Origin: Nitrososphaerota archaeon
GTDB lineage: Archaea; Thermoproteota; Nitrososphaeria; Nitrososphaerales; Nitrosopumilaceae
Direction of reading: 5' to 3'
Length of the DNA: 64,000 bases
Assembly: GCA_028867755.1 (NCBI GenBank)
Contig: JAGWFT010000001.1
Location: 970,727-1,034,726 of the forward strand
Below the pieces are notes generated by a model that saw only the letters and a program-made list of their open reading frames with translations, did no database searches and was not told the DNA's origin. Made by a program: the position numbers and the translations under genes. Each line of letters begins with the position of its first letter. Positions within the stretch are counted from its first letter, which is position 1. This document shows, in pieces, positions 10,510 through 44,107 of the stretch.

Positions 10510-10583
10510 GCCGCCCTAGCTCAGCGTGGTAGAGCAGCTGACTGTTAATCAGCGGGTCGTCAGTTCAAGTCTGACGGGTGGCG
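10510..10583 (+). tRNA. tRNA-Asn (GTT)
   Basis: A 74-nt cloverleaf folds by eye: acceptor GCCGCCC with GGGTGGC (one G-U), D stem GCTC/GAGC, anticodon stem GCTGA/TCAGC with loop CTGTTAA giving anticodon GTT, T stem GTCAG/CTGAC with loop TTCAAGT, discriminator G. No intron and no encoded CCA. Confidence 0.95.
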
Positions 10584-10590
10584 CTTAATA

Positions 10591-10612
10591 TTTCTAAATT
10601 CGAATTCTGAAA
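10591..10612. repeat. Palindromic repeat, copy 1 (imperfect)
   Basis: A 22-bp inverted repeat, TTTCTAAATTC followed by GAATTCTGAAA, with two mismatched positions in the arms. It belongs to the same family as the elements at 10672 and 14668. It lies 7 bp after the tRNA-Asn 3' end. Confidence 0.7.
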
Positions 10613-10784: not shown

Positions 10785-11042
10785 TTGGCCAGAACAAGAC
10801 GCGCAAATAGGTATTGCGTGGATTGTGGAGGGAGATTAGTTTACTATCCCCGCCTTTCGAACCCAAAAGCTCCAAATGAATACAGGGTGCTGGTTTATGC
10901 TTGTCCCGACTGCACTAAAGATTTTGATAAACCAAAGATGTTTTCCATAAAGCGAAACGTGGTAGACGAGCCAATAGAGACAGTAGAAATAGAGATAGTC
11001 CAGGCCAGAGAAAAGGTCCCAGAGGCTGCAAGAGCTGTCTAG
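10785..11042 (+). CDS. Small zinc-ribbon protein
   Basis: An 85-residue basic protein with two Cys pairs, C11-x2-C14 and C40-x2-C43, an evident zinc ribbon, then an acidic beta-rich tail. Start is TTG at 10785, fixed by a strong AGGAGGT at 10773-10779. I know no function; it is probably nucleic-acid-associated given the basic N-terminus (ARTRRANR). Confidence 0.75.
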   Translation: MARTRRANRYCVDCGGRLVYYPRLSNPKAPNEYRVLVYACPDCTKDFDKPKMFSIKRNVVDEPIETVEIEIVQAREKVPEAARAV

Positions 11043-13587: not shown

Positions 13588-13929
13588 ATGGAAAAATTTG
13601 AGCTCAAGTTTTCTGTAACTAAAAAACCAACAGACAGCCAAGCAAGAAAACTTCAGGAATACTTTGGAGAGATGCCAATGGAGGAAATTCTTTCAGGGCT
13701 TTATTTTGCAAAAAGCAGATGGAGTGCAAAGGACGCAGGAGTGCTAAAGGTAGGAAGAAAAAGCATTATCAAAAAAGAGATCCATTCTGTCACGTCTGAG
13801 CAGGCTCAGTGGAGATTGAAAAACTGGAAGATGATGATTGCAAATTATAGAAGGCTAGGATACAGCTACCCAACAATATCTAGAATAAAAAAGCACTTTG
13901 TAGAGATAAGCAAAAAGCGAACTAGATAG
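13588..13929 (+). CDS. Hypothetical basic protein
   Basis: A 113-residue Lys-rich protein (pI clearly basic), with a possible helix-turn-helix-like C-terminus (RRLGYSYPTISRIKKHFVEISKK). No family recognised. Its 3' end overlaps the convergent CdvB-like gene by 8 nt. TATA-like TTAAATAGA lies about 25 bp upstream. Confidence 0.6.
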   Translation: MEKFELKFSVTKKPTDSQARKLQEYFGEMPMEEILSGLYFAKSRWSAKDAGVLKVGRKSIIKKEIHSVTSEQAQWRLKNWKMMIANYRRLGYSYPTISRIKKHFVEISKKRTR

Positions 13930-14560
13930 TAGCTTGTGTCTTTGTAGTGGAAGGCAAGTTGGACGGAAGGTCGGGGAGTGTCTGTCTGACATGGCCTTCC
14001 AGTACCGCTTGCGCTTCTTCTAAAATTAGGTTTGTCTCCGAGCTTGTCGTATCGACAACAAATTGGCTATCACCACCAACTGAAGAGCCTGCCATAATAT
14101 CTCCTAGAATATTTGACAAGTCCTGCATGGTGTTGCCTGCCTCAGGCATGAGTCCGTTCAAACTGGTTCCTAGGCCCCTTATCACGGACATGCATGGGCT
14201 CAGTGTGACAACCACGTCGCCAAGTTCGGATATAGTGTTTAATCTAATCTGTATCTGCTCCATGGCAAGTTTTGCGCCTGTTACCATAGTATTCATCTTT
14301 CTAATCTCGTGCAATTCAGTAGCATATACGTTAGAATATGGTTTGTTGTGGTTTCGTACTGCATCTACCACTTTTCTGAAAATATAATCGTCTTTTTCCT
14401 TTAGTTTTCGTGAGATAGAGTCAAGTTTTGCTATCTGAAGCTGCAGCTTTTTCTGCGCCTCATCAATCTTTGGCCTTAATGGAGCATCTGGCTTTACCTT
14501 ATCAATCACTTTTTGTGATATGCTTTCTTTTTGTGTGTTCCATTTTGCTGCAAAGTTCAT
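13922..14560 (-). CDS. CdvB-like ESCRT-III (Snf7-family) paralogue
   Basis: A 212-residue protein with the ESCRT-III layout: a basic helical N-terminal core (APLRPKIDEAQKKLQLQIAKLDSISRKLKEKDDYIF, quoted in parts), a second helical block (TGAKLAMEQIQIRLNTISELGDVVVTLSPCM), an acidic C-terminal region and a Pro-rich LPDLPSNLP near the end that resembles a MIM2 motif for CdvC binding. ESCRT-III proteins drive membrane scission. No cdvA or cdvC lies beside it, so it is one of the dispersed paralogues. Confidence 0.75.
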   Translation of the reverse strand: MNFAAKWNTQKESISQKVIDKVKPDAPLRPKIDEAQKKLQLQIAKLDSISRKLKEKDDYIFRKVVDAVRNHNKPYSNVYATELHEIRKMNTMVTGAKLAMEQIQIRLNTISELGDVVVTLSPCMSVIRGLGTSLNGLMPEAGNTMQDLSNILGDIMAGSSVGGDSQFVVDTTSSETNLILEEAQAVLEGHVRQTLPDLPSNLPSTTKTQATI

Positions 14561-14667: not shown

Positions 14668-14715
14668 TTGATAATTAATGTTTCTAAATTCGAATTTAGA
14701 AACATTAATTATCAA
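14668..14715. repeat. 48-bp perfect palindrome behind the thioredoxin gene
   Basis: The left arm (14668-14691) is TTGATAATTAATG followed by TTTCTAAATTC; the right arm (14692-14715) is its exact reverse complement. The core is the same TTTCTAAATTC/GAATTTAGAAA as at 10591 and 10672. It begins 5 bp after the stop codon of the leftward thioredoxin gene, so the mRNA could form a 24-bp hairpin. Probable terminator or 3' processing element, or a mobile palindrome. Confidence 0.85.
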
Positions 14716-41422: not shown

Positions 41423-44107
41423 ATGAATAATTTGAGATACATAGCAGTAGCCTCGCTAATTGTTTTGGCAATTCTTCCACATTATGTATTTGCTGACAAT
41501 GGTAACCAGCTTGATACTACACTAATACCAAATAAAATAATTGCAAACACTGATGGTATAATTCAGGTCTACCCAAAAAGTTTTGGTAGCACAATTAGCA
41601 GTATGGTAGCTACATCATCTGATTCTTCAATAGTGCGGATTCTAGATGTAGGAAAAGATGTCTCTCATGATATTTTTAATGTAAAGATTAAGGCATTGAA
41701 CTCAGGTCAGGCAACAATTAACATGGCAGCATCAGGTTTTGCCTCTCTAGAGTTGCCAGTTACCATCTATCCAGATTCTAAAGGAGCCACGAATCTTTTA
41801 ATCAAAGCAACTCCGAAAACTTTTTCAACGTCAGGACCAAATACTGGTTATATTTCTGTAGAAACCGTCAACGCTGATGGGGTTCCGACTCCTGCATCTG
41901 TTGATACTCCAATAAAACTAAGTGTATCAGATAGTAGCATTGCAGGACTGGCCGATGATCAAATGATGATAAAACAAGGTTCATACTTTGCCATGGAAAA
42001 ATTTGCCATAGCAAAGCCTGGCAGTGTTCAAATATATGCATCTGCACCTTCAATGCAGCCTGTATCAGCATCAGTCACGATTAATAATGAGGCTGTACCG
42101 TACACACTCCAAGTTTACGCATATCCGCCAATAGTTAATGTCAATAAAGATGCAGTGTCGTATGTAATAGTCCAATTACATGACTCTGCAGGAAATCCAG
42201 TTATAGCAAAAAATGATATTCATGTATCAGTTAGTGTCGTAAATCCTGTAGACACAACATCAGTTAACACAAGCGGTCAAAGTCCATCTGTGCAGGTAAA
42301 CGATGGTTTTGTTATACAAAAGGGCTCTTACTGGGGATATGTTCCTGTTGAATTTACTGCTGGTGTGAATGCAACGTATAATGTAAATATTTCAGCTAAA
42401 GGTTACGTAATTAGTACAATTCCTGCTAGTACAACAGTTACAACTAGTACTACAGCTACTACTGGCACAACAGTGCCTGGTGGTGGAACATCTACTAGTG
42501 GTACAACAACTACCACTAGTACGACATCTACTAGTGGTACAACAACTACCACTAGTACGACATCTACTAGTGGTACAACAACCAGCGGTACGACAACTGC
42601 AACTGGTACAACAACTGCAAGTAGCACATTGGCCTCAATTTGTACATCAAATCCAATTTCAACCTCAGAGTCACAAGTACAAATTGCTGCTGTCGCACAA
42701 AATTTTGTTATGGATGACAAGACACCATGCTTTTACCCTCTTCCAATTCTTACAACAGGCAACACAGAGTTAATTGGAGTTTTAGCTTTGAAAGACTCAT
42801 CAGGTTATCCAGTGCTTGCAAAATCAGATCTATCATTTAGAATGGATTCGTCTGATGTGTCTACAGTTTCTGTACCAGGCGTGGAAATGGGGTATGGGTC
42901 TCAATCTGCCCTTGTCTTTGCTCAAATTGGCAATGCTGCCAATCCAGTAACACTAAATGTTGTTTCAGACAGTCCTCAGCAGGTAATGCCAGTCATGGCA
43001 TCTCCCTCTCAGGTGACATCAGGTTTGGTGGCTGATTCATTACTTCCAACTGTTTTGCCAAATACGCAATTCCCACTGGCGATTTACGCTACAAATAATG
43101 GCGCTCTCGGCACATTTAAGAACGATTTTACTGCCTTGATCTCTCCACAAGAAACAATCTCGCCTATACAATTGACCGTTACAAAAGGTGATCCGATATT
43201 TCTTACCGACGAAACATTGCTTGAAGGCGGCCCCCAAAATATTGCAATCACAACACCAGATTACTCATCCAATTTCATTGTGACAGGGGCATCATCAAAA
43301 CCAAATGGTATTGTACTTGGTTATCCAGATCAAATTTTTTCAAATAGTAATTTATTGTTTTCAATCGAGTTGTTGGATGATAAACAACTCCCAATACTGG
43401 CTGACAAAGATACTGATATCAAACTAGTTTCAAGTGATCCGTCTGTACTTGATGTGCCAGATAATGTGCAGATAAAGAAAGGTACCTATTATGCAACACT
43501 TGATGCTCACTCCAATTCGTCTGGCACTGCAGAGATTGCAGTACTTGCAGATGAAATACCTCTATCAAAATTTGATGTGCCAGTTACAAGCTATGCACCA
43601 GTAATAAGCATCGACTCGGCTGATCACGCGGACAATAATTCTCCACTTACAGCCACTGTGACAGCTACCTACAATCAATTACCTCTTGCAGGTCTTAATG
43701 TGGATTGGTCGGTAACAGGTGCAACAACAAAGAACGCCGATACCATTACAGACAAAGAAGGTAAAGCAACCATCTCGTTAATCACAAACGATCCTAGTAC
43801 AGTTAGTATAGAGGCAGGCGTTGGAGGAGGACCATATCAAACTGTTACAGTCGATAAGCAAGTCAGTATCAATCCGCCATTGCAGCCTCTCATCTCAACA
43901 GGCCAATCTGGGCAATCTAATTCACAGTCATCTGGTTTTACAGTAATGGGTGTTAGTCCTCTTTTGTTTATTATTCCAGGTGCAGCAGCTGCTGCATTTG
44001 TAGTTTTAAAAAAGAAACAAATGCTAGATGGAATTACCGAAAAAATCAACATTACAGATAGATTTTCAGAAATAAAAGAAAGAATGATGGACTCTGGCCA
44101 ACGATAA
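41423..44107 (+). CDS. Large Ig-like surface protein with Ser/Thr linker and C-terminal anchor
   Basis: An 894-residue secreted protein. Signal peptide (MNNLRYIAVASLIVLAILPHYVFA), many Ig-like beta domains, a Ser/Thr/Gly linker at about residues 336-405 that is probably O-glycosylated, an invasin-type domain near the end (SPLTATVTATYNQLPLAGLN), then a C-terminal membrane helix (LLFIIPGAAAAAFVVL) and basic tail. ATG 41423 is preferred over TTG 41411. It follows the platform gene by 55 bp and may be a filament-associated or cell-wall protein. Confidence 0.8.
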   Translation: MNNLRYIAVASLIVLAILPHYVFADNGNQLDTTLIPNKIIANTDGIIQVYPKSFGSTISSMVATSSDSSIVRILDVGKDVSHDIFNVKIKALNSGQATINMAASGFASLELPVTIYPDSKGATNLLIKATPKTFSTSGPNTGYISVETVNADGVPTPASVDTPIKLSVSDSSIAGLADDQMMIKQGSYFAMEKFAIAKPGSVQIYASAPSMQPVSASVTINNEAVPYTLQVYAYPPIVNVNKDAVSYVIVQLHDSAGNPVIAKNDIHVSVSVVNPVDTTSVNTSGQSPSVQVNDGFVIQKGSYWGYVPVEFTAGVNATYNVNISAKGYVISTIPASTTVTTSTTATTGTTVPGGGTSTSGTTTTTSTTSTSGTTTTTSTTSTSGTTTSGTTTATGTTTASSTLASICTSNPISTSESQVQIAAVAQNFVMDDKTPCFYPLPILTTGNTELIGVLALKDSSGYPVLAKSDLSFRMDSSDVSTVSVPGVEMGYGSQSALVFAQIGNAANPVTLNVVSDSPQQVMPVMASPSQVTSGLVADSLLPTVLPNTQFPLAIYATNNGALGTFKNDFTALISPQETISPIQLTVTKGDPIFLTDETLLEGGPQNIAITTPDYSSNFIVTGASSKPNGIVLGYPDQIFSNSNLLFSIELLDDKQLPILADKDTDIKLVSSDPSVLDVPDNVQIKKGTYYATLDAHSNSSGTAEIAVLADEIPLSKFDVPVTSYAPVISIDSADHADNNSPLTATVTATYNQLPLAGLNVDWSVTGATTKNADTITDKEGKATISLITNDPSTVSIEAGVGGGPYQTVTVDKQVSINPPLQPLISTGQSGQSNSQSSGFTVMGVSPLLFIIPGAAAAAFVVLKKKQMLDGITEKINITDRFSEIKERMMDSGQR
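42488..42592 (+). repeat. 36-bp tandem repeat coding the Ser/Thr linker
   Basis: A 36-bp unit starting ACATCTACTAGTGGTACAAC is repeated at 42488-42523 and 42524-42559, with a partial third unit to about 42592. It codes for (TSTSGTTTTTST)-type repeats. In-frame copy number changes are expected to alter linker length. Confidence 0.8.

What the first reader, a model, noticed from the sequence alone, without database searches (positions are those of the whole stretch)
14668..14715. 48-bp perfect palindrome sharing its core with two elements 4 kb away
A perfect 24-bp-arm palindrome follows the thioredoxin stop by 5 bp. Its core TTTCTAAATTC/GAATTTAGAAA recurs at 10591 and 10672 with one or two mismatches. 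Long perfect palindromes are unstable in DNA, so maintenance suggests recent spread or function as terminator, processing site or protein-binding site.
Basis: seen in the sequence. Interest (0 to 1): 0.6.

Follow-up and report, generated by a model that had tools for sequence, protein, structure and literature searches.

The report
Terminus-side palindrome cluster in ammonia-oxidising archaea
The palindrome is one of two to five copies of a 28-bp two-fold symmetric, probably protein-binding, DNA site that nearly all ammonia-oxidising archaea keep in one spot of their chromosome, on the side opposite the replication origin, beside an undescribed small basic protein and a cell-division gene, which makes it a candidate for the unknown chromosome-segregation or terminus-organising site of these microbes.

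Summary
The 48-bp palindrome is real. In its own 1.64-Mb genome the 22-bp core (up to 3 mismatches) occurs only three times, all in this window. It is not a recent repeat: 221 of 250 genomes of its family carry 1-5 copies, usually in one locus of a few kb. An exact degenerate form occurs in the four families that appear to be the ammonia-oxidising archaea and in none of the other 13 families sampled from the order. Across 379 non-redundant sites the conserved unit is a 28-bp dyad, ATRTTTCWAAAYTCGARTTTWGAAAYAT. Its halves vary almost independently, and close pairs sit about 60, 71 or 82 bp apart, one helical turn between classes. That points to a dimeric DNA-binding protein, not an RNA hairpin. 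In 14 closed genomes the cluster lies 0.40-0.48 of the chromosome from orc1/cdc6; rRNA orientation and the literature put the origin at cdc6, so the cluster is on the terminus side. Neighbouring genes differ between lineages. An undescribed basic 113-aa protein (13588-13929), next to a CdvB paralog, is the best candidate binder: in several lineages a site sits at a fixed position in its promoter. I favour a terminus-located centromere-like or macrodomain-like site; a small local regulon is the main rival. Function is inferred.

The parts
14668..14715 (.). 48-bp perfect palindrome; conserved 28-bp site 14678-14705 with 22-bp core 14681-14702 (site 3 of 3 in this genome)
   Evidence: motif score 43.2 bits
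10586..10617 (.). site 1: imperfect copy, core 10591-10612 (2 mismatches); the core starts 7 bp after the tRNA-Asn 3' end
   Evidence: 36.7 bits
10672..10693 (.). site 2: core copy (1 mismatch), 81 bp from site 1 (one of the three preferred spacings)
   Evidence: 37.6 bits
13588..13929 (+). undescribed 113-aa basic protein (net charge about +15), single copy wherever found, candidate binder of the palindrome
   Evidence: present in families with the site; site in its promoter in other lineages; no known family or fold; all-helical model, pLDDT 91, pTM 0.56
13922..14560 (-). CdvB-type (ESCRT-III-like) paralog, convergent with the candidate binder
   Evidence: NCBIfam NF041005 CdvB1/B2 E=5e-43 but below its curated cut-off; Pfam Snf7 E=0.0086; adjacent to the binder gene in four families
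10510..10584 (+). tRNA-Asn at the end of the spc ribosomal-protein operon; flanks the site cluster in most Nitrosopumilaceae
10785..11042 (+). small zinc-ribbon protein gene next to sites 1 and 2

Best explanation
The palindrome is one member of a small, chromosomally unique cluster of 28-bp dyad sites bound by a dimeric DNA-binding protein, kept on the replication-terminus side of the chromosome in ammonia-oxidising archaea. The protein is most likely the product of the gene at 13588-13929. Bound dimers, phased on one face of the helix, would build a nucleoprotein complex that organises or tethers the terminus region, or acts as a centromere-like site, before or during Cdv-type division. Shown: site conservation and restriction to these families, clustering, near-independent halves, helical spacing, position relative to cdc6, co-distribution with the 113-aa protein and a fixed site in its promoter in several lineages. 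Inferred: that this protein binds the site, that it autoregulates, and the segregation or terminus function.
For: Three sites in the genome, all local; 221/250 family genomes have 1-5 sites, 125/131 of the good-quality ones. A relaxed exact pattern is found in families f1, f2, f3, f8 and absent from all sampled genomes of f4-f7 and f9-f17. No hit above 12 bits in 1.78 Mb of sampled DNA away from the locus, in genomes that have the sites. 379 sites: TTTC..TCGA..GAAA nearly invariant, arm mismatches mostly uncompensated. 65 unique close pairs: 59-61, 66-72 and 80-82 bp, plus two at 77. Distance from cdc6 0.40-0.48 of the chromosome in 14 closed genomes from f1, f2 and f8. Origin at cdc6: 14 of 15 SSU rRNA genes in the 13 of those genomes where one was found are co-directional with forks running from cdc6 to the cluster; ORB repeats and cdc6 are taken to mark the N. 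maritimus origin (PMC5797428). 42 of 205 intergenic sites lie between convergent genes, where a promoter role is not possible. The 113-aa protein shares the distribution, and the site begins at -15, about -44 or -53 to -61 of its start codon in Nitrosotalea, Nitrososphaeraceae-like, f2 and f3 lineages. In the window's genome the only ParA-family hit is an Mrp-type protein; among the other Nitrosopumilaceae checked only G088 has a strong hit.
Against: No binding, localisation or deletion data. The 4-fold-site skew changes sign about 60 kb from the cluster in three closed genomes, so the sites do not themselves set the skew switch point. The opposite-to-cdc6 position is phylogenetically non-independent and could partly reflect synteny of the spc-cdvB block. 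In Nitrosopumilus, Nitrosarchaeum and Nitrosotenuis the candidate binder's own promoter lacks the site. A few Nitrososphaeraceae with sites gave no hit to the protein, and some with the protein gave no exact site. The all-helical model matched no known DNA-binding fold.
Confidence: 0.5

Rival explanations
1. A local transcription regulon: the 113-aa protein is an autoregulator whose few operators control its own gene and a handful of neighbours (for example cdvB, the zinc-ribbon gene, biotin genes).
For: A site overlaps the promoter or start codon of the gene at fixed positions in many lineages; nearly all sites are intergenic and many are upstream of genes; in this window 14668-14715 lies 107 bp upstream of the cdvB start.
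Against: Neighbouring genes differ between lineages while the sites persist; 42 sites are in convergent intergenic regions; in lineages with the site away from the protein's promoter the sites lie 1-16 kb from the gene, and about 140 kb in G006.
Confidence: 0.3
2. A dimer-resolution (dif-like) site or fork-trap site at which a recombinase or terminator protein acts.
For: Terminus-side location; Thaumarchaea lack xerA and were proposed to use another recombinase (PMC2958812).
Against: Two to five copies per genome; full dyad rather than two arms around a 6-bp centre; symmetric sites cannot stop forks in a polar way; the skew switch is about 60 kb away.
Confidence: 0.1
3. A replication origin (ORB-like) cluster.
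For: Clustered repeats at one locus, within about 60 kb of a switch in strand skew; the sign of the GC skew alone would fit an origin here by bacterial convention.
Against: The locus lies opposite cdc6; the spc operon and nearly all rRNA genes would be transcribed head-on to forks leaving it; the N. maritimus origin is assigned to ORB repeats beside cdc6 (PMC5797428).
Confidence: 0.03
4. An RNA-level element: intrinsic terminator or processing hairpin.
For: Site 1 starts 7 bp after tRNA-Asn and the 48-bp copy lies 5 bp after a stop codon.
Against: Arm changes are mostly uncompensated, sites lie in all gene orientations, pair spacing is helical, only two to five copies per genome, no Rfam match other than the tRNA.
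Confidence: 0.04

Closest known systems
parS/ParB chromosomal centromere (e.g. Caulobacter, Bacillus)
   Same: A few copies of a conserved palindrome clustered in one chromosomal locus, in some lineages next to the gene of the presumed DNA-binding protein.
   Different: On the terminus rather than the origin side; no ParA beside the sites; in the window's genome the only ParA-family hit is Mrp-type; 28-bp rather than 16-bp site (the latter from general knowledge); the candidate binder is 113 aa with no ParB domain.
matS/MatP (E. coli terminus macrodomain)
   Same: Palindromic site confined to the terminus region, small DNA-binding protein, possible link to the division machinery.
   Different: Two to five sites in a few kb instead of about 23 over 800 kb (general knowledge); sequence and protein unrelated; division is Cdv-type.
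SegAB centromere-like sites of Sulfolobales
   Same: Archaeal, palindromic, site at the promoter of the binder's operon.
   Different: SegB motif TCTAGA-S-TCTAGA with tens of sites, mostly within genes and scattered (PMC12284271); no SegA-type gene near the sites; the binder model is all-helical, not ribbon-helix-helix.
XerA/dif of archaea
   Same: Short inverted-repeat site opposite the origin.
   Different: dif is a single site with 11-bp arms around a 6-bp centre; Thaumarchaea lack xerA (PMC2958812).
ORB / oriC elements
   Same: Conserved repeats clustered at one chromosomal locus.
   Different: The cluster is on the opposite side of the chromosome from cdc6, and the 11 cdc6 neighbourhoods examined contain no such sites.

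Membership tests
parS/ParB | ParA-type ATPase partner encoded in the genome | tested here: not met
   PF13614 finds only an Mrp-type protein in G000 (sequence read) and short partial hits of similar length in most other Nitrosopumilaceae checked; G088 and the f8 genomes have stronger ParA-type hits, far from the sites
parS/ParB | ParB-domain binder encoded nearby | tested here: not met
   no Pfam/NCBIfam match for the candidate binder
parS/ParB | binding and spreading of the protein at the site | not testable with these tools
   needs ChIP-seq
matS/MatP | site restricted to the terminus region | tested here: met
   sites cluster 0.40-0.48 of the chromosome from cdc6
matS/MatP | MatP homologue | tested here: not met
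   candidate binder has no Pfam/NCBIfam match and no PDB fold match; MatP itself was not searched for in the genome
SegAB | segA upstream of segB next to the sites | tested here: not met
   no ParA-like gene near sites
SegAB | SegB motif TCTAGA-S-TCTAGA | tested here: not met
   consensus is ATRTTTCWAAAYTCGARTTTWGAAAYAT
Xer/dif | one 28-bp site with 11-6-11 structure per chromosome | tested here: not met
   2-5 copies, uninterrupted dyad with an invariant centre
Xer/dif | XerA recombinase | not tested
   literature states absence in Thaumarchaea (PMC2958812)
ORB/oriC | located at the origin beside cdc6 | tested here: not met
intrinsic terminator / RNA hairpin | compensatory changes in the arms | tested here: not met
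   observed complementarity close to that expected for independent halves; two positions show a modest excess
local transcription operator | site at promoters of the same target genes across lineages | tested here: inconclusive
   met for the 113-aa protein gene in several lineages, not in others; 42 sites in convergent regions

The most novel reading that the evidence does not exclude
A so far undescribed chromosome-maintenance system of ammonia-oxidising archaea: a terminus-located, centromere-like or macrodomain-like cluster of palindromic sites bound by a new all-helical protein family, genetically linked to a CdvB-type gene, in archaea that lack xerA and SegAB-type genes near the sites.
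Probability: 0.4. Interest if true: 0.87.

Novelty: new variant of a known kind. Interest (0 to 1): 0.75.

Why it matters
How ammonia-oxidising archaea, among the most abundant microbes in the ocean and soil, segregate their chromosome is unknown, and a 2016 review lists the nature of archaeal centromeres as an open question (PMC5120986). This gives a defined 28-bp site, a short list of loci per genome and one candidate protein, so the question becomes testable by ChIP-seq and in vitro binding. It would also be a sequence marker for the terminus side of these chromosomes, and may connect terminus, segregation and Cdv division.

Tried and rejected
Recent repeat or mobile-element spread: rejected, only three local copies and vertical conservation. 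Origin of replication: rejected by position, rRNA orientation and literature. dif site: rejected on copy number and geometry, although the recombinase question stays open. SegAB/ParABS: no partner genes near the sites. RNA hairpin: mostly no compensation. Biotin-operon operator: suggested by bio genes beside the sites in Nitrososphaeraceae, rejected because those genes are absent near the sites in many Nitrosopumilaceae. Fold search of the candidate binder against the PDB: best E-value 1.8, nothing meaningful. Search for a shared palindrome at the skew switch point 60 kb away: nothing clear. Text search for the motif: no relevant paper. A first guess that the sites mark the exact skew switch was dropped after finer sampling.

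Full report
Observation. The palindrome at 14668-14715 is exact, with 24-bp arms, 5 bp from the stop of a minus-strand thioredoxin-like gene. The 22-bp core recurs at 10591 and 10672 with 2 and 1 mismatches; shuffles give none. The window lies in a 1.64-Mb genome, and there are no further copies there with up to 3 mismatches.

Spread across species. The same 22-mer with up to 3 mismatches is present in 221 of 250 genomes of the family, 1-5 copies each, with almost no matches to the mirrored control. A relaxed exact pattern TTTCNNAANTCGANTTNNGAAA is found in families f1, f2, f3 and f8, and in no sampled genome of the other 13 families of the order. That the four families are the ammonia oxidisers is my inference from these names and from genome sizes. 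A motif matrix gives no hit above 12 bits in 1.78 Mb of sampled DNA away from the locus, from genomes that do have the sites.

Anatomy. From 379 non-redundant sites the conserved unit is +/-14 bp: ATRTTTCWAAAYTCGARTTTWGAAAYAT. At variable positions left and right halves agree about as often as expected if they varied independently (for example 0.47 against 0.49 at position 12; a modest excess, 0.68 against 0.60 and 0.70 against 0.61, at positions 3 and 7), which fits a dimer reading half-sites and not a paired RNA. Neighbouring sites closer than 130 bp fall into 59-61, 66-72 (mode 71) and 80-82 bp, with two at 77; the classes differ by about one helical turn. The data are not phylogenetically independent, and the pairs at 66 and 77 are off phase. 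The 24-bp arms of this window's copy are the longest of all sites; the outer 10 bp per arm are not conserved.

Chromosomal position. The cluster is 0.40-0.48 of the chromosome away from orc1/cdc6 in 14 closed genomes from families f1, f2 and f8. In the window's own genome the distance is about 740 kb of 1.64 Mb, assuming that the unplaced contigs lie elsewhere. Several lines put the origin at cdc6. In 13 of those 14 genomes an SSU rRNA gene was found; 14 of the 15 copies are transcribed in the direction of forks moving from cdc6 to the cluster, and in G256 and G287 rRNA genes on both arms converge on it, one in each being co-directional only if the forks meet near the cluster and not at the geometric antipode. 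Strand-specific skew at 4-fold sites has one sign change near cdc6 and the other near the cluster. [quoted passage not shown] maritimus (PMC5797428). The second skew change is, however, about 60 kb from the sites, on the ribosomal-protein side, in G012, G023 and G024, so the sites are in the terminus region but are not themselves the switch. The sign of the GC skew would by bacterial convention suggest the opposite polarity; I give more weight to rRNA orientation and to the literature.

Neighbours. In most Nitrosopumilaceae the sites follow the spc ribosomal operon and tRNA-Asn, but the genes between and beyond them differ: zinc-ribbon, membrane proteins, DUF2299, H1-like basic protein, F420-dependent oxidoreductase, ArsR-like regulator and purC in some; biotin genes in Nitrososphaeraceae; G006 keeps sites without the ribosomal operon beside them. 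Of 205 intergenic sites, 134 are between tandem, 42 between convergent and 29 between divergent genes (simple ORF calls of at least 70 codons); convergent ones cannot act on promoters.

Candidate binder. The gene at 13588-13929 encodes a 113-aa protein with net charge about +15, found once in each of 20 genomes checked and in 70 of 151 genomes of the order, all from the families with the site; G292 of family f2 lacks both. A site begins at -53 to -61, at -43/-44, or at -15 of its start codon in lineages of families f2, f3, f8 and in Nitrosotalea. This is the pattern expected of an autoregulated DNA-binding protein. Nitrosopumilus, Nitrosarchaeum and Nitrosotenuis, including this window, lack the site at that promoter. 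The protein has no Pfam or NCBIfam family, no sequence relative in the PDB, an all-helical model (pLDDT 91, pTM 0.56) and no fold match. It sits convergent to a CdvB-type gene (NF041005, E=5e-43, below the curated cut-off), an arrangement kept in several families.

Interpretation. The most economical reading is a small cluster of dimer-binding sites with a chromosomal role on the terminus side. It resembles parS/ParB in being a local cluster of palindromes and matS/MatP in position, but meets neither membership test: no ParB or MatP domain in the candidate, and no ParA near the sites. SegB sites have another motif and number (PMC12284271), and Thaumarchaea lack xerA (PMC2958812). The main rival is a local regulon of the same protein, supported by its promoter site and by the position of the window's palindrome upstream of cdvB, and weakened by changing neighbours and convergent sites. 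Binding, autoregulation and function are all inferred; no experiment has been done.

Limits. Position and spacing statistics are not corrected for phylogeny. Several MAGs are fragmented, so absence of a gene there is weak evidence.

Noticed in passing
G012:C1 ~690-700 kb, G023:C1 ~750-760 kb, G024:C1 ~390 kb (loci L233, L234, L238, L239, L322, L323): Strand-specific 4-fold-site skew changes sign about 60 kb from the palindrome cluster, on the ribosomal-protein side, in three closed genomes; it may be the usual meeting point of forks.
   Followed up: partly
L277-L287, about 20-60 bp upstream of the 113-aa gene in Nitrosopumilus/Nitrosarchaeum-type genomes: A different conserved promoter element (TTTAGTTAAtTCtgaTTTAGCaagaTtTCTTAA-like) stands upstream of the candidate binder gene where other lineages have the palindrome.
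   Followed up: no
L045:10911-11183, L050:7041-7427, L042, L052: A lysine/arginine/alanine-rich H1-like protein gene lies beside the outermost site in several genomes.
   Followed up: no
window 42493-42557: Inverted and direct copies of TACTAGTGGTA within 65 bp.
   Followed up: no
window 13922-14560: The CdvB-type gene scores below the curated cut-offs of the CdvB and CdvB1/B2 models; its assignment to a CdvB subtype is uncertain.
   Followed up: no
G038, G083, G088, G089, G090, G136, G322, G324: Second or third Cdc6-like proteins with weaker scores, possibly on integrated elements.
   Followed up: no
G000 (own genome): No SSU rRNA gene was found in the 112-contig assembly, which is otherwise rated 99.95% complete.
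   Followed up: no
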